The notes beneath the pieces are model-generated. The model ran no database searches. It was not told the DNA's origin and was given only the letters and a program-made list of their open reading frames with translations. A program made the translations under genes and the position numbers. Shown piece after piece: positions 42,652 to 53,939 of a DNA stretch of 57,813 nucleotides. The DNA is from Thermodesulfobacteriota bacterium. Lineage in GTDB: Bacteria; Desulfobacterota; Deferrisomatia; Deferrisomatales; JACRMM01. How positions within the stretch are numbered: the stretch's first letter is position 1; the number at the start of each line of letters is the position of its first letter. The stretch covers positions 38,690 to 96,502 of the forward strand of contig JBFLZB010000001.1 in the NCBI GenBank assembly GCA_040756475.1, given 5' to 3'.

Positions 42652-43614
42652 TTACGGCCCGAACTGGAATGCCGCCCAGAGGACCGCTCCCACGGCGCCG
42701 GCGAGCGCCGCGAGGCCCGCCAGCCACCACCAGGTGCCCCGTCGGGCAGGGGTCGCCGGGGGAATGATGGGCCCGCGCAGGATGCTCTCCAGGGAGGTCT
42801 CTCCTTCGGCCGGCTCGGTCCGGGCCGGAGAGTCCGCCGGTCTGCCCGACTCGGCGGCGAACGGGGCCGGGGCCGCGGGTTCCCCGGTCACCTGGAGGAC
42901 TGCGGCGGTGGCGTTGTCCCTGGTGCCGGCGGCCAGCGCTGCCTCCACCAACCCCACGGCGGCGGCCTCGGGGTCGGGCCCTGCCGCGGCCTTCAGGATC
43001 TGGCCGGGGGAGAGCACCCCGTGCACGCCGTCGGAGGTGAGGACGAAGACGTCGCCCGGGCGCGCTTGTCCCCGCACCACCTCGGGCTCCACCTCCGGCA
43101 TCGTGCCCACCGCCTGGGTCAGCACGTTGCGGTCCGGTTGCAGGGGGGCTTCCTCGGGGGTGATGAGCCCCGCCTCGACCCGAGCCTGGACGAGGGAGTG
43201 GTCCCGGCTCAGTTGGGCCAGGGTCCGGCCGCGCAGCAGGTAGGCCCGGGAATCGCCCACGTTGACCGACCAGAAACGGCCGCCGCGGACCAGCACCAGG
43301 ACCATCGTGGTGCCCATCCCCAGCAGGTCCGAGGTGGTCTGGGCCCGGGCGTAGATGCGGCGGTTGGCCTCCTCGAAGAGCCGAACCAGGAGGGCCTCCT
43401 CGGCTTCGGGGGAGCCGGCTTCTCCGAGGCCGCGGGCCAGGAGCTCACCGGCCGTCTCCACGGCTTCCCGGCTCGCCACTTCGCCCCCCGCCGCGCCCCC
43501 CATCCCGTCGGCCACCAGGGCGTACCCCAGCCGGGCGTCGACACGGGCCGCGTCCTGGTTGTTCCGGCGCGGACCGGTCGCGGTATGGAACGCGGCGTCG
43601 CAGGGCTGGGGCAT
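42652..43614 (-). CDS. PP2C-type Ser/Thr protein phosphatase with C-terminal membrane anchor
   Basis: A 320-residue Mn/Mg-dependent phosphatase of the Stp1/PppA type. All acidic metal-site motifs are present: RRNNQDAARVD, YALVADGMGGAAGGE, VNVGDSRAYLLRG, LTSDGVHGVLS and GTRDNATAAVL. A 70-residue linker leads to one C-terminal helix (WWWLAGLAALAGAVGAVLWAA), so it is tail-anchored with the catalytic domain in the cytosol. In T6SS loci such phosphatases (PppA) reverse kinase-driven activation of Fha. It is the first gene of the leftward unit that includes the FHA kinase-like protein. Confidence 0.92.
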   Translation of the reverse strand: MPQPCDAAFHTATGPRRNNQDAARVDARLGYALVADGMGGAAGGEVASREAVETAGELLARGLGEAGSPEAEEALLVRLFEEANRRIYARAQTTSDLLGMGTTMVLVLVRGGRFWSVNVGDSRAYLLRGRTLAQLSRDHSLVQARVEAGLITPEEAPLQPDRNVLTQAVGTMPEVEPEVVRGQARPGDVFVLTSDGVHGVLSPGQILKAAAGPDPEAAAVGLVEAALAAGTRDNATAAVLQVTGEPAAPAPFAAESGRPADSPARTEPAEGETSLESILRGPIIPPATPARRGTWWWLAGLAALAGAVGAVLWAAFQFGP

Positions 43615-43954: not shown

Positions 43955-46450
43955 ATGGAGCGAAAGGGTGCGGCGTTCGCCCCCGAGGAGTTCGGGGCGG
44001 CCGTCTTCGGGCTTCCCCCGCCGGTGCGACTGTCCGTGGGCCTGCGGGAGTCCCCCCAGGGTGCGGCGTTCGAGGCGCTGCCGGACCCCTTTGCCCGGAT
44101 CGGCGGCCGGGAGGGACTCGGGACGATCGTGCTCGGGCGGGTGACGGTGGAGGGCCTGGGGAACGCCGGCAACCGCCCCGTCGCCCTCTTTCTGGAGCGG
44201 GACGCCTGCGCCGCCGCCGAACCCTTGCCAAACCCCGCCCGCGACCAGGCCTTCGAGCGCCACTACCGGGAGCTCCTGCGCCTGGGCCAGGAGGCCGGCG
44301 CCCCGGTGCTGCGCCCGCTTGCCTTGGGAGCGTCCACGGGGGAGCCGCCCGCGTTGCCGTCCTCGCCTCCCCTGACCTTCTGCAAGCGCCGCCGCCTCTT
44401 CTTCACACCCCCCTGCCCCCGGTGCGGGCGGCCCCTGGCAGACTGCCGGGACGACGCCCTCCTGGCGGAGACGGGGCTCGCCACCTACTCCGGCTCGGCG
44501 CGGCGTTATGTGTACTGTCCGACGTGCGCGGCGGGGGCGGCGGCAGGGCCGGCGCTTTTCGGGTGCGGTGAGGGGACCAACGGGGGACCGGCCGGGAACC
44601 GCTGGGATCTGGTGGGCGCCTGGGGGCGCCTCGTGGGCGAGGCAGCCGGCTCCGACCCCTCCTTCCCGTGCCCCGGGTGTGCCCACGCGGGCGGCTGTTA
44701 CCCGGCCGGATCCGGCGAAGGGGAGGCGTTTCGCCTGCTCGTGCCCTTCTCCTTCCACGGGTTCCGGGTCTTTGCCCTGGAGTACCTTCCCCTCACCTAC
44801 GGGGAGTTCTGCGACCTCCTCGGGGGCCAGTCGTGGGAGGCACTGCGCTCCGGGCTCGCCGAGCGGCGGGCGTTCGACCGGCTGGCGGCCCTGCCCGAAG
44901 CTCCCGTCGGGGACGCCGGAAACGGTACCGCCGGCCGGCGCCTGTTCCTTTCGGGCGAGGCGACCGGGCGGCGGGCACTGGAGGCGCTGGCGCTGAAGCT
45001 CTCCGCGTTTCGAGAGCTGTGCCGGGGCGTCCACGCGGTTCACCGGGTCCTCGGCCGCCCCCACCTGGACCTGGGGCCCGACGGCGCTTGGGTGGGCCTG
45101 GGGGCCTGCGGCCCGTACGCGCCGGCCTACTGGAGCTTCGAGCTGCGCCTGGGGGGGGTGGACGCGGCGCGGTGCGCGGGCGGCGCCGATGGGGAGGACG
45201 CTCCCGCCGGGGCCGAGCCCGACCGATTTTCCTGCCGCCCGCCCCCCGACCCGGATCCGGAGTACGCCCACCCCGGCATCGCCCGCCGGGGGCCCGGGGG
45301 GCCCTTTCCCGGCAGGCTGACCGTGCTCTCGGTGGAGCCGTCGGGGGGCTCCGACGCGCGGGTGGTCCGGGCGCTCCTGGCCGGGGCAACCCGGGGGCTG
45401 GAGGATTGGGGACCGGGGGACCGTCTTCGGGTGGGCTTCGGGCGGGCCCAGGGCTTCGGGGGCGACTTCTCCCTTTCGTTCTTCCAGGAGGCTCGGGTGC
45501 GCGACGGGGTGCGGCTCGCTTGCGAGCCTTTCGCCCCCTCCACGGAAGACCTGGCCCAGTGGGAGCTGCTCCGGTCGGTTCCCCAGGTGGAAGCAGCCTG
45601 CTCGGTGGAGCGCGGCTTCGGCCCCGAGTGCGACCTCTACAGCCTCGGGATGCTCCTGTTGCGGGGGCTCTCGGCGACCCCGGCCGCGGGCCCTGGCGGC
45701 GAGGGGGTGTTGGAGCGGTGCCGCGAGGCGGCGGCGCGGTTTGCCCAGGCTGTGGGCGGCCCCTCCAGCCCCGGGGGCGAGGCGGCGGATACCAGGGCCG
45801 AGGTGTTTCGCGAAGTGCTCGAGGATCTACGGTTCGACCCGGAGGACGGCGTGCCCCGGGAGCTGTGGGAGGACGTCCTGTCCCTGGGCTCTCGTTTGGT
45901 CGCGCCGCCTCGCGGTGCGTCGCTGGCCTCGCTCCTGGAGGAGCTCGAGGGCCTGCGAGCCAGGGTGGAAGAGGCCCTCTTCCAGGGGCCCGCCCCGGGA
46001 GAAGGGGAGCTTCGGGAAATCCTGGGCGAGCTCATTGCCGACCCTTCGTGGCTCGACGCCGCGCTGGGCGGCGGGGGACCTCCACCACCGCCGCTGCCCG
46101 AACCGGCTGCGGCACCCGAGGTTGCGTCCGCGCCCGTGCCGGAGGTCCCGCCCGCGGCCCCCGAGCCCCCGGCGGCGGAGCCGCCGGACCTGGATGCCAC
46201 GGTGATCCTGCGCAAACCGGGCGCTCCGGCCCAGGCGCCCCCTGCGCCCCGAGCGGCCGCCGCACCCCGGAAACCAGAGATCCCGGGTGCTGGAGCAGGG
46301 GAGGACCTGGAGTCGACGGTGATCCTGGGGGGGAGGGGCGTGCGGCCGCCCCAGGAGGCCCCGGACGAAGAGGCGCCGGGCGAGGAAGCCGGCGAAGACC
46401 TGGAGAAGACGATCATCCTGCGGCCCGCGGCGCGGCCGAAGGAGAAGTAG
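43955..46450 (+). CDS. kinase-like zinc-ribbon scaffold with three FHA-type phosphothreonine motifs
   Basis: An 831-residue protein, first of the Tss operon. The order resembles a protein kinase: N-lobe-like RPVALFLERD (75-83) without the ATP-anchoring Lys, a Cys-rich insertion (C154, C157, C164, C188, C191; C239, C242, C248) suggesting zinc ribbons, a hinge-like FALEYLPL, a catalytic-loop-like PHLDLGPDG (369-377) in place of HRDLKPEN, and CDLYSLGMLLLRG (559-571) resembling subdomain IX. D372 is kept, but the following Lys and Asn are not. The Pro-rich tail carries DLDATVIL, DLESTVIL and DLEKTIIL (Thr 749, 788, 819). Each has Leu at +3, a known FHA preference. A pseudokinase or divergent kinase scaffold is likely; no named family is recognised. 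Confidence 0.72.
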   Translation: MERKGAAFAPEEFGAAVFGLPPPVRLSVGLRESPQGAAFEALPDPFARIGGREGLGTIVLGRVTVEGLGNAGNRPVALFLERDACAAAEPLPNPARDQAFERHYRELLRLGQEAGAPVLRPLALGASTGEPPALPSSPPLTFCKRRRLFFTPPCPRCGRPLADCRDDALLAETGLATYSGSARRYVYCPTCAAGAAAGPALFGCGEGTNGGPAGNRWDLVGAWGRLVGEAAGSDPSFPCPGCAHAGGCYPAGSGEGEAFRLLVPFSFHGFRVFALEYLPLTYGEFCDLLGGQSWEALRSGLAERRAFDRLAALPEAPVGDAGNGTAGRRLFLSGEATGRRALEALALKLSAFRELCRGVHAVHRVLGRPHLDLGPDGAWVGLGACGPYAPAYWSFELRLGGVDAARCAGGADGEDAPAGAEPDRFSCRPPPDPDPEYAHPGIARRGPGGPFPGRLTVLSVEPSGGSDARVVRALLAGATRGLEDWGPGDRLRVGFGRAQGFGGDFSLSFFQEARVRDGVRLACEPFAPSTEDLAQWELLRSVPQVEAACSVERGFGPECDLYSLGMLLLRGLSATPAAGPGGEGVLERCREAAARFAQAVGGPSSPGGEAADTRAEVFREVLEDLRFDPEDGVPRELWEDVLSLGSRLVAPPRGASLASLLEELEGLRARVEEALFQGPAPGEGELREILGELIADPSWLDAALGGGGPPPPPLPEPAAAPEVASAPVPEVPPAAPEPPAAEPPDLDATVILRKPGAPAQAPPAPRAAAAPRKPEIPGAGAGEDLESTVILGGRGVRPPQEAPDEEAPGEEAGEDLEKTIILRPAARPKEK

Positions 46451-46456
46451 GGCCCC

Positions 46457-47179
46457 ATGGACGCCCCGGCGCAGGCCCCTTTCGTCCAACCCGATTCCGC
46501 CCGGGACCTGGCCGGCTTTTTGCGCGCGGCGCACCGGCGCAGTGCCGGCCTGCCTGCGGGGGAGCGGCGCCGGGCGGTGGAGCTCTGCCTCGCGTACCGC
46601 TTGCGGGGACTCGGTCGGGACGGCGCCAGGGCGCTCCTGGAAGGGGCCGCCCAGGTCCTCGGAGCCGGGGAACGGCCCCGGGCCCCGCGCCCCGGGCACC
46701 GGGGGGCCGGCGGGCCTCCCCTCGCACCCCCGGGCGTGCTGCGGGAGCTCCTGGGGCGGGTGCTGGGGGAGGCCGGGTCTCCGGACCGGGAGGGCCCCGA
46801 AGCCTTCGCCCGGGTCGCCGAGGAGCTGGCGCGGGTGGAGGAGCAACTTGCCCGGGCCAAGCCCCGGGCTCCGGCCGGGGCCCCGCTGGGTGAGCGGGTG
46901 GGGGAGCTCCAGGACCGCCTGGCGGGGGTCGATCGGGCGCTGGAACAGACCGCCCAGGAGTTCCTGGACCGCCTCCTGGACGCCTTCGACCCCGACGCGG
47001 CCAAGGCCTACGTGGGCCAAAAGGGCCTCAAGCCCTCGGCGTTCTACAAGGCCTCGGTGTACGATGCCCTGTGCGAGAAGTTCGCCCAGCTCCGGGAGTA
47101 CCACCGCCGGGGCCGGCTGGTGCGGGATTTTCGCGCTACCTTCAAGAACCACTTGAAACGACACGATCCCACGCCGTGA
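46457..47179 (+). CDS. uncharacterised Tss-operon protein, distantly TagH-C-like
   Basis: A 240-residue soluble protein 6 bp after the kinase-like gene. It begins with a helical Arg-rich region, has a Gly/Pro/Arg linker (residues about 74-92), a predicted coiled coil (VAEELARVEEQLARAK) and a conserved-looking C-terminus, LDRLLDAFDPDAAKAYVG to LVRDFRATFKNHLKRH. The C-terminal pattern (an F-D-P motif then long helices) resembles the helical domain after FHA in TagH/Fha proteins of T6SS, but without FHA here. That assignment is tentative. The position between kinase-like gene and tssJ suggests an adaptor to the membrane complex. Confidence 0.6.
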   Translation: MDAPAQAPFVQPDSARDLAGFLRAAHRRSAGLPAGERRRAVELCLAYRLRGLGRDGARALLEGAAQVLGAGERPRAPRPGHRGAGGPPLAPPGVLRELLGRVLGEAGSPDREGPEAFARVAEELARVEEQLARAKPRAPAGAPLGERVGELQDRLAGVDRALEQTAQEFLDRLLDAFDPDAAKAYVGQKGLKPSAFYKASVYDALCEKFAQLREYHRRGRLVRDFRATFKNHLKRHDPTP

Positions 47180-47188
47180 GGTGACGAG

Positions 47189-47773
47189 ATGACGACGCGC
47201 GAGACGAGGGAAGGCCGAAAGGTCGGGGGGGGGCGGCAATGGGTCGCCCTGGCCCTCCTGGTCCTGGGGATGGCGGTGACGGGCTGCGGGGGCGGCGCCG
47301 CCGTGCGGGTCGACTGCGACTACGGGTACGCCAAGGACGCCCTCTCGTTTCGGCTCGCGGCGTCCCCGGACCTGAACCTCTACAACAACCAGCCCCACAC
47401 GGTGGTGCTGGTCTTCTATGCCCTCTCCGATCCCAACTCCTTCAACCAGCTCCTGGAGTCCTCCGACGGCATCGGCAGGCTCCTGGAGGGCAAGCGCTTC
47501 GACGCGAGCGCGCTCTCCCCTCGGCAGATCGTGGTCCAGCCGGGGGAGACCAAGGAACTCGTCATGGACCGGGTCCAGGGCACCCGCTACGTGGGGGTGG
47601 TGGGCGGGTTCTACAACCAGCAGGCCCAGAGCTTCAGCCGACTCTACACGGTGCCCACGAAAAAGCTCACGACGCTCTTCGGGAAGGAGAAGGCGTGCGT
47701 GACCGAGCCCCTCGCGGTGGACCTGGAGCTGGGGAGCGACGGGTTCGTGGGCCCGGGGGAGGCCAGGCCGTGA
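47189..47773 (+). CDS. tssJ: type VI secretion outer-membrane lipoprotein TssJ
   Basis: A 194-residue lipoprotein. The signal peptide ends in the lipobox GMAVTGC. The mature beta-sandwich region reads LNLYNNQPHTVVLVFYALSD and NSFNQLLESSDGIGRLLEGK, then VVQPGETKELVMDRVQG, matching the order of conserved blocks in TssJ (hydrophobic strand after Asn-rich turn, F/L-rich helix, PGE turn). TssJ anchors the TssL-TssM complex to the outer membrane. It lies 9 bp after the 240-residue gene and 61 bp before tssK. Confidence 0.82.
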   Translation: MTTRETREGRKVGGGRQWVALALLVLGMAVTGCGGGAAVRVDCDYGYAKDALSFRLAASPDLNLYNNQPHTVVLVFYALSDPNSFNQLLESSDGIGRLLEGKRFDASALSPRQIVVQPGETKELVMDRVQGTRYVGVVGGFYNQQAQSFSRLYTVPTKKLTTLFGKEKACVTEPLAVDLELGSDGFVGPGEARP

Positions 47774-47834: not shown

Positions 47835-49223
47835 ATGAACCAGGGCCGGCCGATCTACTGGCACGAGGGGGTCTTCTTGCGCCCCCAGCACTTTCAGCAG
47901 CAGGACGACTTCCACGACGCCAAGCTCTGGGCGCTGGCCGGCGCGGGCCGGCCCTACCCCTGGGGGGTGCGGACGCTGGCGGTGGCGGAGCCCGCCCTCA
48001 AGAGCCAGGTGTTCGAGGTAGCCTCGGGCGAGCTTCTCTTCCCCGACGGGGCCCTGGTGCGCCTGCCGGGAAACGCCCGCCTCAAGCCCCGGTCCCTCGA
48101 AGGCCTTTGGGACGCCTCGGGAAAGCCCCTCTCGATGTACGTGGGCCTGCACAAGCTCGCCCCCGAGGGGGTCAACGTGGCCGAGGAGGAGGGGGGCGAG
48201 CGGGAGGAACGCCGGTACGCGGCCTCCAACGGCGACACCTCCACCCGCGACCTCTACGCCCGGGGGGAGGGCCAGCCGATCCTCTATCTGGAGTACCGCC
48301 TGCGCCTCTTCGTGGAGGACGAGGCCGCCGAGGCCACCGACTACCACCTGCTCAAGATCGCCGAGGTTCAGCGCTTCGGCAATGACGTGCGCCTGGTGCC
48401 CGGGTGGGTGCCCCCCCTGGTGCACGTGGCCGGGTCGGCCCACCTGGTGCGCGAGCTCCGGGATCTGGGGGAGCAGCTCACCGCCCACGCCCACGAGCTG
48501 GCCCAGTACAAGCACGGCCGCGGCGTGGAGGCCCCCGACCTGGGCTCCCGGGATCTCCTGTACCTGCTCGCGCTGGCGGCGCTCAACCGGTGGGTGCCCC
48601 GGGTGCGCCAGTACCTGGAAACCGGCGAGGTCTCCCCCTGGGAGTTCTACGCCCTGCTGCGCCAGCTCGTGGGCGAGCTCTCCACCTTCTCGAGCCGTTA
48701 CGACGCCTTCGGGGCGCTCGCCGACACCCCCGGCGACGAGGGCCTGCCCCCTTACCGGCACACGGATCTCGGCCGGTGCTTCGGCGAGGCGTGCGGGGTC
48801 GTGGCCCGGCTCCTGGAGGAGCTCACCGCCGGACCCGACTTCGTGGCCCCGCTGCTCTTCGACGGGACCTACTACGCCGCCGACGTGCCCGACCGGATCT
48901 TCCAGGGCCGCAACCGTTACTACCTGTGCGTGCGCAGCGAGCTGGAGCGGGAGCAGGTGGTCGGCACCCTCCAGGCCATCGCCAAGCTCGGCTCCCGGGA
49001 GTACCTGCCGCTGCTCATCGCCCGGGCCCTGCCCGGGGTGGCGCTCCAGGAGCTCCCCACCCCCCCCAACGAGTTGCCCCGGCGTCCGGGCAGCCTATAC
49101 TTCGCCGTCGAGAGCCACGGCCCCGCCTGGGACGCCGTGAAGGAAAACGCCAACGCGGCCATCTACTTCGAGACTCCCCCCGGGGAGATCGAGATCGAGC
49201 TGATGGTGATCTATGAAAAGTAG
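47835..49223 (+). CDS. tssK: type VI secretion baseplate protein TssK
   Basis: A 462-residue TssK (ImpJ/VasE family). The N-terminus IYWHEGVFLRPQHFQQQD is the family hallmark. The C-terminal part contains ALPGVALQELPTPPNELPRR and the ending AIYFETPPGEIEIELMVIY, both typical. TssK connects the baseplate to the TssL-TssM membrane complex, so its presence implies that a baseplate or tail-like partner exists in the cell, although none is in the window. It overlaps tssL by 11 bp. Confidence 0.93.
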   Translation: MNQGRPIYWHEGVFLRPQHFQQQDDFHDAKLWALAGAGRPYPWGVRTLAVAEPALKSQVFEVASGELLFPDGALVRLPGNARLKPRSLEGLWDASGKPLSMYVGLHKLAPEGVNVAEEEGGEREERRYAASNGDTSTRDLYARGEGQPILYLEYRLRLFVEDEAAEATDYHLLKIAEVQRFGNDVRLVPGWVPPLVHVAGSAHLVRELRDLGEQLTAHAHELAQYKHGRGVEAPDLGSRDLLYLLALAALNRWVPRVRQYLETGEVSPWEFYALLRQLVGELSTFSSRYDAFGALADTPGDEGLPPYRHTDLGRCFGEACGVVARLLEELTAGPDFVAPLLFDGTYYAADVPDRIFQGRNRYYLCVRSELEREQVVGTLQAIAKLGSREYLPLLIARALPGVALQELPTPPNELPRRPGSLYFAVESHGPAWDAVKENANAAIYFETPPGEIEIELMVIYEK

Positions 49224-49914
49224 CGAAGCGTCCGGCGACGTGGCGGGCTGTTTCGTCGACCTGCTCGCCTACGTCTTCTTCCTGCGCTGGATCTGCGCGC
49301 GCAAGCAGCCCGAGTTCGCCGCCGTAAAGACCCGCGTCGACCAGCTCATCGACGACAGCGCGCGCCGCATGCGCGCAGCCGGCATCGACCCCCGCGACTA
49401 CGACGACGCGCGGTTTGCCGTTCTCGCCTGGGTGGACGAGACCATCCTCAACATGCCCTGGGGCCAGCGGGAGCAGTGGACCCGCTCGCTCCTCCAGGTG
49501 CGCTACTACAACACCACCAACGCGGGAGAGGAGTTCTTCGAGCGGCTCAACCGCCTGCGGTCCGACGAAAAGAGCGTGCGCGAGGTCTACTACCTGTGCC
49601 TGAGCCTGGGGTTCCGCGGGCGCTACCACGACGACGGCGACGAGTTCCTGCTGGAGCAGCTGCGAAAATCAAACTTGAAATCGATCCTCGGCGCGAGCCG
49701 CGAGCTCAACACCTATGCCGCCGAGCCGGCCTTCCCGGGCTCCGGGGATACCGGTCTCGGGGGCGCGGGCCGCAGGCCCGCGGGGAGGTTCTGGACCCTG
49801 CCCCGGATCGCCCTGGCGGCGGCCCCTCCGGTCTTCCTGGTCCTCCTCTTCGTCGTCTACCACTTCGTGCTCGACGGTGTGGTTGAAAATCTCCTGACCC
49901 GGGTGCAGGGGTGA
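49213..49914 (+). CDS. tssL: type VI secretion inner-membrane protein TssL (DotU family)
   Basis: A 233-residue short-form TssL. The cytosolic helical domain carries ARFAVLAWVDETILNMPWG, GEEFFERLNRL and LCLSLGFRGRYHDD, the three most conserved blocks of TssL/DotU. A single C-terminal membrane helix (ALAAAPPVFLVLLFVVYHF) sits near residues 195-216, and there is no peptidoglycan-binding OmpA-like domain. The start lies inside tssK, so the two are co-translated. TssM follows 5 bp after the stop. Confidence 0.93.
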   Translation: MKSSEASGDVAGCFVDLLAYVFFLRWICARKQPEFAAVKTRVDQLIDDSARRMRAAGIDPRDYDDARFAVLAWVDETILNMPWGQREQWTRSLLQVRYYNTTNAGEEFFERLNRLRSDEKSVREVYYLCLSLGFRGRYHDDGDEFLLEQLRKSNLKSILGASRELNTYAAEPAFPGSGDTGLGGAGRRPAGRFWTLPRIALAAAPPVFLVLLFVVYHFVLDGVVENLLTRVQG

Positions 49915-49919
49915 GTGCC

Positions 49920-52900
49920 ATGAAGGCGCTGCTCAAGGGAGTGCTGGTGGGCGGGGTGACCCTGGCGGGGGGCTCGGCCGCCCTGGCCGCCTACGTCTTG
50001 GGGTGGACGCCCGTCCAGGCCGGCCTCCTCTTCGGGGCGGTGGCGGTGCTGGGGGCCGCGGGAGTGGTGCTCATGCGCCTTCTGCGCGCCCGGCGCAAGG
50101 CGGCCCTCCCCGAGGCTCCATCGGCTGCCGACGCCGGCCCCCGGGGCAAGGAGGCGGCCGAGCGGCGAAAGGCCCTGGACGCCCGGTGGAAGACCTTCGT
50201 GGGCCAGCTTCGCCGCGCCAAGGTAAAGGGACGGGGCGACCCCGTCTACGCCCTCCCCTGGTACCTCTTCCTGGGGGAGGACGGCGCCGGCAAGACCACG
50301 GCCGTCGAGAACAGCCTGCTCGCGGTGTCCGGAGGGCAGCCTCCCCGGGAAGAGCCCCAGGCGGGGGGCAGCTTCGGCTGGAGGGTCCTGGAGGAAGGCA
50401 TCGTCCTCGACGCCCCGGGCCGCTATGCCTTTCCCCGCGATCCACTGGACGAGGCCGAGTGGGCGGAACTGTGCTCGCTGCTCGTGCGCACCCGCAAGGA
50501 GGAGCCCCTCAACGGCGTGCTCCTGGCCGTACCTGCGGGGGCGCTCCTGAGCCGGGGCGACGACGAGCTCAGGCGCCAGGGGGCCGCCCTGGGCAAGCGC
50601 CTGGACGAACTCACCCGCACCCTGGGGGCGGTGGCGCCGGTCTACGTGCTCGTCACCCAGTGTGATCTCGTAGGGGGCATGGCCAGGTTCTTCGGGAACC
50701 TGCCCGAGAACGCCTTTGCCGGGGCCATGGGCGGCCTCAACGACGACCGCGCCCTGGAGCGCCCCCAGGAAGCCTTCCCCGAGCAGGTGTTCGGCCGGCT
50801 CTACCGGGACCTGCGCCAGCTTCGCCTCACGCTGTTGGGCGACGTGCCCCCCGACGAGGTCCACCCCCAGGCCGTGCTCTTCCCCGAGGAGTTCCTGGAG
50901 CTCAAGGCCCCTCTGGGGCGGTTCCTCGAGGGGGTCTTCGAGAAGAACCCCTACCGGGAGCCGCCCTTCTTTCGGGGGCTCTACTTCACCAGCGCCCGGC
51001 AGGCGGGCACCCCCGCCTCGGCGTGCCTCACCCGCCTGGGGCTCCAGGACGAGATCCTGCCCCTGGCCGGGGAGAGCCGAAGCCTCTTTCTCAAGGACTT
51101 CTTCGGGCGCGTGCTGCCCGGAGACCGCGCGCTGGCGGCCCCTACCTCCCGGGCGCTGAGCTGGCGGCGGCTCACCCAGAACGCCGCCCTGGCCGGGTGG
51201 GTGCTCGCCTGCGTGGCCGTGGGGGTGCTCTTGAGCCTCTCCTTTGGCCGCAACCTCTCCACCGTGCGCAAGGTGGACCGGGAGATCCCGCCCCGCCCCT
51301 ACCTGGGGGCGGAGTTCGGGCCGAACGTGGAGCTGGCCGACCAGCTGCGCGCCACCGTGCGGGAAGCCCGGGAGAGCGGGCGGGCCGGCGTGCTCCCCCG
51401 CCTGGGACTGACCCAGGGGGAGGATCTGGCCGACCGCCTCGCGGCGGTGTTCGTGGAACGCTACCGGGCCGGCGTCCTCGACCCCCTGGACCGGGAGCTC
51501 GACCGGGGCCTCCTGGCCGTGAGCGACGGCAAGGACCCCTCGCGGGTGGCCCGCTACGTGGACTACCTCTCCAAGCGCACCAAGCTCCTGCGGCTCGCCG
51601 CGGAGGGGGAGCGCTCCGAGGAGGCTCTGGCTGCCGCCGAGCAGCCCGACTTCGGGCTGGTCCTGGCGCTGCCCGGGGGCGCCGCGGCGCCCGCCCTGGC
51701 CGAGCCGGTGGAGCGTGGCTACGGCGCCTACCTGGCGTGGCGTACCGACCCGGGGGGAGCGGCCAAGGATCTGGAGGCCGAGCAGGCCCGCCTGGCAAAC
51801 CTCCTCGCCCAGAAGGCCGTGGGGTTTGCCTGGCTCGTGGAGTGGGCCAACCTGCAAGAGTCCCTGCGCCCCGTCACCCTGGCCGTGTACTGGGGGGCCG
51901 AGCCTCCCCCAGCCGCCGGCGGAGGAAGACCGGTCCTGGTCGAGCCGGCCTACACGCCCCCGGGCTGGCAGGAGATCAGCGGGTTCATCTCCACCATTTC
52001 CCGTTCGGTGGCCGGGGGCGAGGGGCTGGGGGCGGCGCTGAATGCCTTCGAGACCTCCTACCGCACCCAGTACCTGGCCCAGTGGGAGCGCTTCCTGCGG
52101 GAGTTCAGGCAGGGGGCCGGAGGCTGGACCGGGCGCCAGAAGAGGATCGAGCTCGCGGGCCGCCTGGCCGGTCCCGAGTCTCCCTACCAGCGGGTCATGG
52201 CCGACGCCGCCGAGGGCCTCGCCCCCGCGGTGGGCCTGGCCAAGACCCTGGACGACGTGCCCGAGTGGGTCTCGCTCCTCTACCGCTGGGAGCGCCTGGG
52301 GAACCCCGAGTACCAGAAGGCCCTCAAGGGGGCCGAGGGGGTGATGGGGCGCCTGGTGAGCCGGGGAGGCAAGGTGCTGGCCGACCTGCGGGCGCGCTTT
52401 TCCGGGCAGGCCGACGAGGCCCGGGTGGTGGAGCAGGACACCCGGGGCGTGGCCTTGGTGGCGGCGTACCAGGAGAGCCTGCGGCAGATGGCCGCCGCGG
52501 TCCAGGCCCCCGCCGCCGCCTACCAGGCGGCGCGGGAGGCCTATGTGGAGGCCGAGACCCGGGTGGGCGAGCCCCAGCAGCCCGTCTCGCGAAACGCCTG
52601 GGCCCAGGCCCGGCTCTCCTCGCTGCTGTCCCAGGGCAGGCCCCGGGAGGCGGTGTTCTGGCAGCTCCTGGCCGAGCCGACGTCCCAGGTCTGGGGGGTC
52701 ATGCTCGACGAGGCCCAGGTCCACCTGCAGCAGCGGTGGGAGGCCGAGGTCCTGGCCGAGGCGAAGACCTTCACCGGCTGGGAGCAGGTGGGCGCCCTCC
52801 TGGGGGAGGGCGGCAAGGTGTGGGCCTTCCAGAGCCAGTATGTGGACACCTTTGTCGCCAAGGACCCCCGGCGGGGCTTCGTGCCCAAACGCCTGCACAA

Positions 52901-53408
52901 CGACTCGCTGACCTTCTCCGGGGGCTTCCTGGGGGTGTCGAACCTGGGCAAGCTCGGCGGCAAGGCCTTCGAGCGCAGCTACCGGGTGCAGATCGCCGCC
53001 GTGCCCACCTCGGCCAACCCCGGCGCCACCGTGCAGCCCCACCGCACCCGCCTGGTGCTCCAGTGCGCCGCCGAGAACCAGGAGCTCGTCAACCTCAACT
53101 ACCCCATCGAGAAGACCTTTTCCTGGACCCCCGGGGAGTGCTCCGACACGGTGCTGGAGATCGCCGTGGGCGACGCCGTCCTGCTCAAGCGGTACTCGGG
53201 CCACGACGGCTTTATCGCCTTCCTCAAGGACTTCCAGGCCGGCACGAGAACCTTCCGCGCCGAGGAGTTTCCCCCGGAGCAGAGCCGCCCCCTGGCCGGC
53301 TACCAGGTGCGAAACCTCACCGTGGGCTACACCTTCAAGGGCCACGCCGAAGCCCTGCGCCTGGCCGTCTACGATCCCAACGCCGTGCCCGCCGCCCTCT
53401 TCGAGTAG
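49920..53408 (+). CDS. tssM: type VI secretion inner-membrane protein TssM (IcmF family)
   Basis: A 1162-residue IcmF-type protein. Two N-terminal membrane helices (about residues 5-27 and 32-52) precede a cytosolic NTPase-like domain with an intact Walker A, LGEDGAGKTTAVENS (from about residue 116), and VLVTQCDLVGGMARFFGN as the NKxD-like region. A third helix (LAGWVLACVAVGVLLSL) near residue 425 is followed by the large periplasmic domain that contacts TssJ. A GTG at 49911 in frame is possible, but ATG 49920 has AGGGG at better spacing. Length and topology are standard. It ends the operon. Confidence 0.94.
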   Translation: MKALLKGVLVGGVTLAGGSAALAAYVLGWTPVQAGLLFGAVAVLGAAGVVLMRLLRARRKAALPEAPSAADAGPRGKEAAERRKALDARWKTFVGQLRRAKVKGRGDPVYALPWYLFLGEDGAGKTTAVENSLLAVSGGQPPREEPQAGGSFGWRVLEEGIVLDAPGRYAFPRDPLDEAEWAELCSLLVRTRKEEPLNGVLLAVPAGALLSRGDDELRRQGAALGKRLDELTRTLGAVAPVYVLVTQCDLVGGMARFFGNLPENAFAGAMGGLNDDRALERPQEAFPEQVFGRLYRDLRQLRLTLLGDVPPDEVHPQAVLFPEEFLELKAPLGRFLEGVFEKNPYREPPFFRGLYFTSARQAGTPASACLTRLGLQDEILPLAGESRSLFLKDFFGRVLPGDRALAAPTSRALSWRRLTQNAALAGWVLACVAVGVLLSLSFGRNLSTVRKVDREIPPRPYLGAEFGPNVELADQLRATVREARESGRAGVLPRLGLTQGEDLADRLAAVFVERYRAGVLDPLDRELDRGLLAVSDGKDPSRVARYVDYLSKRTKLLRLAAEGERSEEALAAAEQPDFGLVLALPGGAAAPALAEPVERGYGAYLAWRTDPGGAAKDLEAEQARLANLLAQKAVGFAWLVEWANLQESLRPVTLAVYWGAEPPPAAGGGRPVLVEPAYTPPGWQEISGFISTISRSVAGGEGLGAALNAFETSYRTQYLAQWERFLREFRQGAGGWTGRQKRIELAGRLAGPESPYQRVMADAAEGLAPAVGLAKTLDDVPEWVSLLYRWERLGNPEYQKALKGAEGVMGRLVSRGGKVLADLRARFSGQADEARVVEQDTRGVALVAAYQESLRQMAAAVQAPAAAYQAAREAYVEAETRVGEPQQPVSRNAWAQARLSSLLSQGRPREAVFWQLLAEPTSQVWGVMLDEAQVHLQQRWEAEVLAEAKTFTGWEQVGALLGEGGKVWAFQSQYVDTFVAKDPRRGFVPKRLHNDSLTFSGGFLGVSNLGKLGGKAFERSYRVQIAAVPTSANPGATVQPHRTRLVLQCAAENQELVNLNYPIEKTFSWTPGECSDTVLEIAVGDAVLLKRYSGHDGFIAFLKDFQAGTRTFRAEEFPPEQSRPLAGYQVRNLTVGYTFKGHAEALRLAVYDPNAVPAALFE

Positions 53409-53525: not shown

Positions 53526-53939
53526 TCAGGGGGCGATGATGGGAATGGCCAGGCGGCCCTTCTTGCGGTATACGCGGAAGTGGCCGTCCGTGGTCAGCAC
53601 GGCGCTTGCCGGATTGAGCTCGGCCATCCGCACCAGGCAGGCATCTGCGAGGGACATGGGCTGGTCCGCGTACCGCGCCATGAGATCGCGAAGCCGAGGC
53701 ACTTCGCCCGCGAGGCGGTATGAGAGCTCCACGATTCCCCGGGCCACCAGTTCCAGCGCGGCGTCCGGGCCGGAGGGCAGCCCCCGGAGCAGGAAACAGG
53801 CCTCGGAAAGCACGGCCTCACAGGTGAGAAGAGGGGGACGGAGCTCGGCCAGTCGGGTCCGCGCCCACCCGTGGTGCACGTCGCGGCGGTTGAGGAAGGC
53901 CACAAGGGGGCCGGTGTCCAGTATCGTCGGGGCGTTCAC
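53526..53939 (-). CDS. PIN-domain toxin, VapC type
   Basis: A 137-residue PIN-domain ribonuclease. Acidic active-site residues appear in order: D in ILDTGPLVAFLNRRD, E in CEAVLSEACFLL, D in PMSLADACLVRM and D in AVLTTDGHFRVY. VapC toxins cleave tRNA or rRNA. The ATG overlaps the upstream antitoxin stop by 4 bp, the usual vapBC arrangement. It converges on the Tss operon. Confidence 0.88.
   Translation of the reverse strand: MNAPTILDTGPLVAFLNRRDVHHGWARTRLAELRPPLLTCEAVLSEACFLLRGLPSGPDAALELVARGIVELSYRLAGEVPRLRDLMARYADQPMSLADACLVRMAELNPASAVLTTDGHFRVYRKKGRLAIPIIAP

What the first reader, a model, noticed from the sequence alone, without database searches (positions are those of the whole stretch)
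43955..46450. Kinase-like zinc-ribbon protein with three D-L-[DE]-x-T-[VI]-I-L motifs
The protein keeps the order of kinase elements but lacks the ATP-anchoring Lys and has HLDLGPDG instead of HRDLKPEN, with Cys-rich ribbons inserted between the lobes. Its disordered tail repeats DLDATVIL, DLESTVIL and DLEKTIIL. The +3 Leu suits FHA binding, and an FHA protein and a PP2C phosphatase are encoded divergently. A substrate-scaffold for pThr/FHA signalling built on a divergent kinase looks undescribed to me.
Basis: partly seen in the sequence, partly recalled or inferred. Interest (0 to 1): 0.86.

Follow-up and report, generated by a model that had tools for sequence, protein, structure and literature searches.

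The report
T6SS pseudokinase with phosphothreonine-motif tail
This gene encodes an undescribed part of a bacterial toxin-injection machine (type VI secretion): a dead protein kinase whose floppy tail carries repeated threonine sites that a partner kinase probably phosphorylates, so that a two-headed phosphothreonine-binding protein can dock and switch the machine on.

Summary
Window 43955-46450 encodes an 831-residue cytosolic protein with nine near-invariant cysteines, a decayed kinase fold and a disordered tail carrying DLDATVIL, DLESTVIL and DLEKTIIL; these are the only three hits of that pattern in the 5-Mb genome. Homologues in the same position carry 1-9 tail motifs (101 found, 1.5 expected), always Thr, never Ser. 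In one genus only a ~130-residue tail protein remains. Of 43 T6SS-bearing genomes in the phylum sample, a conserved double-FHA protein occurs in 25, all with the motif tail, and in none without it. It lies beside a Ser/Thr kinase and a PP2C phosphatase, often in the same T6SS cluster. In Planctomycetota relatives the kinase part is followed by, or fused to, FHA plus T6SS_FHA_C, and the tail is missing; one relative keeps HLDLKPEN. Best reading: a 'split Fha', a T6SS threonine-phosphorylation pathway in which a multi-site phosphothreonine tail recruits a separate double-FHA adaptor. Phosphorylation and binding are untested.

The parts
43955..46450 (+). CDS, 831 aa: T6SS pseudokinase / zinc-ribbon protein with phosphoacceptor-like tail (called F1 here)
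   Evidence: open frame; first gene of conserved T6SS module in about 20 Desulfobacterota clusters
44381..44527 (+). Cys-rich ribbon 1/2: Cys143, Cys154-x2-Cys157, Cys164, Cys188-x2-Cys191
   Evidence: near-invariant cysteines
44669..44698 (+). Cys-rich ribbon 3: Cys239-x2-Cys242-x5-Cys248
   Evidence: Cys invariant in all 20 aligned members
45062..45085 (+). degenerate catalytic loop HLDLGPDG (residues 370-377)
   Evidence: HRD-Asp not conserved (DNNGGRRRADRNDDGGSA), Lys and Asn positions lost; intact HLDLKPEN in relatives L190 and L192
45302..45610 (+). beta-rich insert (about residues 450-552), model resembles the ferredoxin-reductase/siderophore-interacting beta-barrel
   Evidence: secondary structure and partial Foldseek matches; present only in window, L005 and L019 among A2 members; assignment of those matches to this insert is inferred
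46070..46447 (+). disordered C-terminal tail (residues 706-831)
   Evidence: pLDDT below 50
46187..46210 (+). motif 1 DLDATVIL, Thr749
46304..46327 (+). motif 2 DLESTVIL, Thr788
46397..46420 (+). motif 3 DLEKTIIL, Thr819
46457..47179 (+). T6SS_FHA_C-like protein without an FHA domain (F5/F10)
   Evidence: weak PF20232 match (0.19 here; 0.0035 in L051; 1e-4 in L188); F5 profile matches a canonical Fha (E 7.9e-6)
47189..47773 (+). TssJ
   Evidence: PF12790 E=2e-16
47835..49223 (+). TssK
   Evidence: PF05936 E=2e-100
49213..49914 (+). TssL/DotU
   Evidence: PF09850 E=3e-45
49911..53408 (+). TssM/IcmF
   Evidence: PF14331 E=6e-63
42652..43614 (-). PP2C phosphatase, divergent; likely eraser
   Evidence: PF13672 E=4e-19; also next to F1 in L011
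40994..42730 (-). FHA-GAF-HisKA sensor kinase; possible second reader, conserved only narrowly
   Evidence: PF00498 E=2e-16; homologue downstream of TssM in L011

Best explanation
The protein is a cytosolic T6SS assembly regulator, a 'split Fha'. Its zinc-ribbon/pseudokinase front docks on the T6SS_FHA_C-like neighbour and the membrane/baseplate proteins encoded next to it. Its disordered tail carries several acidic-x-hydrophobic-x-E-Thr-[VI]-[VI]-[LIM] sites that a separate Ser/Thr kinase phosphorylates on signal. The phosphothreonines then bind the first, canonical FHA domain of a conserved double-FHA protein encoded with the kinase and a PP2C phosphatase. Several sites give a graded or multivalent switch, and PP2C resets it. 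This replaces the covalent FHA plus T6SS_FHA_C link of ordinary Fha by a phosphorylation-dependent link. Shown by sequence: the operon, the motif arrays, loss of the front with the tail kept, co-occurrence with double-FHA, the fused arrangement in relatives, decay of the kinase. Inferred: phosphorylation, FHA binding, the docking surface, and control of T6SS firing.
For: Fixed order F1 - F5 - TssJ - TssK - TssL - TssM (- TagF - TagJ - TssA - TssB - TssC). 101 motif cores in 25 proteins (24 with motifs) against 1.53 expected; none of 22 other gene families of the loci carries the acidic motif. The residue before [VIM][VI][LIM] in tails is Thr in 97 of 98 cases and never Ser, as pThr-specific FHA reading would demand. 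Acidic -4 to -6, Glu -1 and Leu/Ile/Met +3 resemble the site logo of mycobacterial PknA-dependent phosphothreonines (acidic -1 and -3 to -6, Leu/Val +3; PMC7164672); FHA domains select by pT+3 (PMC5549992). Tail-only proteins stand in the same gene position in one genus. Double-FHA: 26 of 395 genomes with a sharp gap (E<1e-100 against >=3e-21); among 43 TssK-positive genomes: both 25, motif tail only 2, double-FHA only 0, neither 16 (Fisher p=6e-10, not corrected for phylogeny). Kinase, PP2C and double-FHA lie together, on the same contig about 25-45 kb from F1 in several genomes. First FHA keeps the canonical G-R, S-R-x-H and N. Planctomycetota: pseudokinase-FHA-T6SS_FHA_C fusion in L191 and tail-less F1 beside a canonical Fha in L189; of 13 Planctomycetota genomes searched only G612, the one with a 4-motif tail, has the double-FHA ortholog (expectation noted, issued in the same turn as the search, before its result was seen).
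Against: No phosphorylation or binding data. The co-occurrence rests largely on one T6SS clade, with one joint loss and one joint transfer inside it, so the Fisher p-value overstates independence. G102 and G273 carry the tail but no double-FHA ortholog was found; G102 is a fragmented assembly, G273 is rated 99% complete. In this genome kinase and double-FHA are on other contigs (L128, L147), so linkage to the T6SS is not shown here. Docking of the front on F5, TssK or TssL is a guess from gene order and fusions.
Confidence: 0.7

Rival explanations
1. The tail motifs are phosphorylated but are read mainly by another FHA protein, such as the divergent FHA-GAF-histidine kinase beside this gene, feeding a two-component transcriptional response rather than T6SS assembly directly.
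For: FHA-GAF-HK is encoded next to PP2C and F1 in the window and downstream of TssM in L011; its best NCBIfam match is the FHA-histidine kinase EspA.
Against: Such a protein was seen near F1 only in the window and L011, with a GAF-HisKA relative near the double-FHA in L146, whereas the tail motif and double-FHA co-occur in 25 genomes.
Confidence: 0.12
2. The tail repeats are not phosphorylation sites but short beta-strand-forming motifs (E-T-V-I-L) that add to a sheet in a T6SS partner, in the way of a linear assembly peptide.
For: The hydrophobic [VI][VI][LIM] core would suit beta-augmentation; the motif number varies from 1 to 9.
Against: The Thr is invariant in 97 of 98 cores and never Ser or Val, and the acidic flanks and the presence of kinase, PP2C and double-FHA in the same genomes are unexplained; a planctomycete Hanks-type kinase carries about 14 similar x-x-T-[FYIL]-[VIL]-[LM] repeats in cis.
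Confidence: 0.12
3. The protein is an active atypical kinase that phosphorylates its own tail.
For: Kinase-like fold; the window protein keeps an Asp in HLDLGPDG; relatives L190 and L192 keep an HLDLKPEN loop and a VAIK-like Lys.
Against: VAIK Lys is Phe here, no HRDxxxxN Asn, no DFG; the HRD Asp is G/N/R/A/S in most members; tail-only members have no kinase domain at all.
Confidence: 0.04

Closest known systems
T6SS threonine-phosphorylation pathway (PpkA / PppA / Fha) of Pseudomonas H1-T6SS, Serratia and Agrobacterium (PMC3953482, PMC6082577)
   Same: T6SS-encoded; Ser/Thr kinase, PP2C phosphatase and FHA present; a phosphothreonine read by FHA licenses assembly; Fha lies next to tssJ in Pseudomonas (gene order from own knowledge).
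   Different: Known substrates are Fha itself (Thr362 in Pseudomonas, Thr438 in Serratia) or TssL Thr14. Here a dedicated pseudokinase with 1-9 sites would be the substrate, FHA and T6SS_FHA_C are on separate proteins, and the FHA protein has two FHA domains.
TagH/Fha (FHA plus T6SS_FHA_C, PF00498 + PF20232)
   Same: Same genomic slot; the next gene is a T6SS_FHA_C-like protein; fused forms occur in Planctomycetota (L189, L191).
   Different: The protein itself has no FHA and no T6SS_FHA_C domain.
TssW of Acidovorax citrulli (TssW-PpkA-Fha axis, PMC12607579)
   Same: Accessory T6SS protein acting on the PpkA-Fha pathway, encoded among T6SS genes.
   Different: [quoted passage not shown] this protein shows no strongly hydrophobic segment (highest 19-residue hydropathy 1.19) and carries pThr-like motifs.
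Hanks-type Ser/Thr kinases (Pfam Pkinase)
   Same: Divergent kinase-like fold; relatives keep HLDLKPEN and VALK/AIK.
   Different: Catalytic residues lost in Desulfobacterota members; Cys-rich ribbons inserted within the kinase fold, before the hinge.

Membership tests
Hanks-type Ser/Thr kinase (active) | VAIK lysine | tested here: not met
   Phe79 in the window protein; Lys in only 2 of 18 aligned members, kept in several Planctomycetota members
Hanks-type Ser/Thr kinase (active) | HRD catalytic Asp | tested here: inconclusive
   Asp372 present in the window protein but not conserved in the family
Hanks-type Ser/Thr kinase (active) | HRDxxxxN Asn and DFG Asp | tested here: not met
   Gly377; YWSFELRLGG in place of DFG
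Protein-kinase fold (pseudokinase) | kinase-like fold | tested here: met
   Foldseek list of L066 model is almost all kinases but best E only 0.0099; window model JAK2/TYK2 probability 0.82-0.99; Pkinase E=7e-6 in relative L190
Protein-kinase family by sequence profile | Pfam Pkinase gathering score in this protein | tested here: not met
   no match
T6SS Fha/TagH | FHA domain | tested here: not met
T6SS Fha/TagH | T6SS_FHA_C domain | tested here: not met
   absent here; weak in the next gene
T6SS threonine-phosphorylation pathway | encoded in a T6SS gene cluster | tested here: met
T6SS threonine-phosphorylation pathway | kinase, PP2C and FHA protein in the same genome or cluster | tested here: met
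T6SS threonine-phosphorylation pathway | kinase-dependent phosphothreonine needed for secretion | not testable with these tools
   needs mass spectrometry and mutants

The most novel reading that the evidence does not exclude
A previously undescribed family of T6SS regulators in which a protein kinase decayed into a scaffold whose multi-site phosphothreonine tail takes over the physical link between FHA and T6SS_FHA_C, giving a 'split Fha' switch whose strength is set by the number of tail sites; in one lineage only the tail is left.
Probability: 0.6. Interest if true: 0.8.

Novelty: new variant of a known kind. Interest (0 to 1): 0.74.

Why it matters
T6SS firing is licensed in model bacteria by a kinase-phosphatase-Fha pathway with one known site per system. 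This family would show a dedicated multi-site substrate, built on a dead kinase, that links a trans-acting FHA adaptor to the machine. It gives a clear evolutionary series (kinase-like, pseudokinase, tail only; fused FHA against phospho-linked FHA) and makes the open question of what pThr-FHA contact does in T6SS assembly testable with short peptides.

Tried and rejected
Generic 'kinase substrate' reading without T6SS: rejected by gene order. Active kinase: rejected by lost catalytic residues and tail-only members. Membership in Fha/TagH: rejected, no FHA or T6SS_FHA_C. TssW identity: rejected. Sequence profile against solved structures: no match. NCBIfam and Pfam gave no family for F1. A first ORF-regex for tail motifs missed the tail-only proteins and was corrected. 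L152 looked like a tail-F5 fusion, but an ambiguous base lies at the junction, so it is not claimed as one. Literature searches for a T6SS pseudokinase, a Planctomycetota T6SS FHA protein, or a T6SS zinc-ribbon kinase-like protein found no description; only open-licence papers could be searched.

Full report
What is there. Window 43955-46450 (+) is an open frame of 831 residues. Motifs, cysteines and the degenerate catalytic loop are as described. The three tail motifs are the only matches to their degenerate codon pattern in the 5-Mb genome. AlphaFold2 predicts a folded front and a disordered tail from residue 706. There is no strongly hydrophobic stretch, so it is probably cytosolic.

Where it sits. 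Directly downstream are a T6SS_FHA_C-like protein without FHA, then TssJ, TssK, TssL and TssM. The same order F1-F5-TssJ-TssK-TssL-TssM recurs in about 20 Desulfobacterota genomes, continuing into TagF, TagJ/ImpE, TssA, TssB and TssC. (The record titles of close relatives, place the window's genome near Deferrisomatales/Deltaproteobacteria.) In this genome the sheath gene is on another contig. Homologues were found in 21 of 395 genomes of the phylum sample by profile (G219 among them through its tail only), and six further T6SS genomes carry only the tail or a tail cut by a contig end (G018, G055, G147, G240, G354, G273).

The tail. In 25 proteins the core T[VIM][VIML][LIMV] occurs 101 times against 1.53 expected by shuffling; one of the 25, L019, has none. 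None of 22 other families of the same loci shows the acidic version. The consensus is acidic at -6 to -4, Leu/Phe/Met/Ile -3, Glu -1, Thr, [VI], [IV], [LIM], with 1-9 copies and the last copy near the C-terminus in most members. The residue at the Thr position is Thr in 97 of 98 cores, never Ser. The flanks resemble PknA-dependent phosphothreonine sites of M. tuberculosis (PMC7164672), and the +3 position is the known FHA selectivity position (PMC5549992).

The front can be lost; the tail is kept. In L059 and L063 the pseudokinase C-lobe is missing. In genus g15 (L065, L148-L151) only a short helix (AIxxILxxILxKW) and a tail of about 90 residues with about three Thr sites, not all strictly matching, remain, in the same gene position. 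The TssK tree places a full-length member (L052) among these tail-only ones, so the front was probably lost more than once.

The kinase part. No family library recognises the window protein. A homologue's model finds almost only protein kinases in the PDB, at weak E-values; the window model finds JAK2/TYK2-type kinases plus an unrelated beta-barrel of the ferredoxin-reductase type that probably corresponds to an insert at about residues 450-552. Planctomycetota relatives settle ancestry: L190 matches Pkinase (E=7e-6, below the curated cut-off) and keeps HLDLKPEN, and several keep VALK/AIK. In Desulfobacterota the Lys, Asn and DFG are gone and the Asp varies, so it is a pseudokinase.

Partners. 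A conserved protein of about 310 residues with two FHA domains, the first canonical, occurs in 26 of 395 genomes with a sharp score gap. Among the 43 genomes with TssK, the motif tail and this protein occur together in 25, tail alone in 2 (G102, G273), protein alone in 0, neither in 16 (one, G309, with its upstream cut by a contig end; for several others only the stretch around TssK was examined); Fisher p=6e-10 without phylogenetic correction. The TssK tree shows most of this is one clade with one joint loss (f28: L153, L156) and one transfer. The double-FHA gene is next to PP2C and kinase genes and in several genomes lies about 25-45 kb from F1 on the same contig, at the other end of a T6SS cluster with ClpV, VgrG, TssF, TssG, TssE and Hcp. 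In G130 and G102 a CHASE2 kinase gene, and in G240 another kinase gene, is next to F1.

Fused relatives. In Planctomycetota (14 of 294 genomes) L191 carries pseudokinase, FHA (E=1e-13) and a T6SS_FHA_C-like end (E=0.0024) in one protein; L189 has a tail-less F1 beside a canonical Fha (T6SS_FHA_C E=4e-24, FHA E=7e-16). Both lack the motif array. Only L188 (G612) has the array, and its TssK falls inside the Desulfobacterota clade. The expectation that only G612 would have the double-FHA ortholog was noted in the same turn as the search was launched, before its result was seen; it held (E=2.6e-53 against 4.7e-19 for the next genome), and that ortholog sits beside a divergent PP2C-like gene.

Mechanism. 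A kinase phosphorylates the tail; the double-FHA protein binds; PP2C resets; the front and the short helix hold the tail at the T6SS base. The first two steps follow from motif, gene content and known FHA chemistry; the docking step is inferred from gene order and fusions. In Agrobacterium, Fha binding to pThr14 of TssL activates secretion (PMC3953482), which shows that this kind of contact can license a T6SS.

Limits. No biochemistry. Statistics are not corrected for shared ancestry. The Foldseek kinase evidence is weak by E-value and gains weight from the sequence of relatives.

Noticed in passing
L198:5439-7679: A planctomycete Hanks-type kinase (broken by an N run) carries about 14 N-terminal repeats of the type E/N-x-T-[FYIL]-[VIL]-[LM] (e.g. 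FEPTFVLKD), an apparently independent array of the same kind of motif in cis to a kinase.
   Followed up: partly
window 45302-45610: Residues about 450-552 form a beta-rich insert in the kinase fold; partial Foldseek matches are to ferredoxin-reductase/siderophore-interacting barrels. Present only in window, L005 and L019 of alignment A2.
   Followed up: partly
L129:8612-10183: A 523-residue protein next to the double-FHA gene matches both VipA and VipB (TssB and TssC), as if a second, fused sheath-like protein; related proteins next to double-FHA in L134 and L140.
   Followed up: no
L129:1943-6743: Kinase gene flanked by a trypsin-like protein and a TPR/thioredoxin-like protein, conserved across several clusters and also on G000:C2 (L147).
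   Followed up: no
L064:8267-10803: F1 front (594 aa) and its motif tail lie in different frames of overlapping ORFs; sequencing error or real frameshift not decided.
   Followed up: no
L191:7907-12172: A single DLEATSMV stretch lies between FHA and T6SS_FHA_C in the fused planctomycete protein; may be a relic or precursor of the tail motif.
   Followed up: no
window 53526-53939: Small reverse-strand ORF that reads like a PIN/VapC-type protein just after TssM; marks the end of the T6SS genes on this contig.
   Followed up: no
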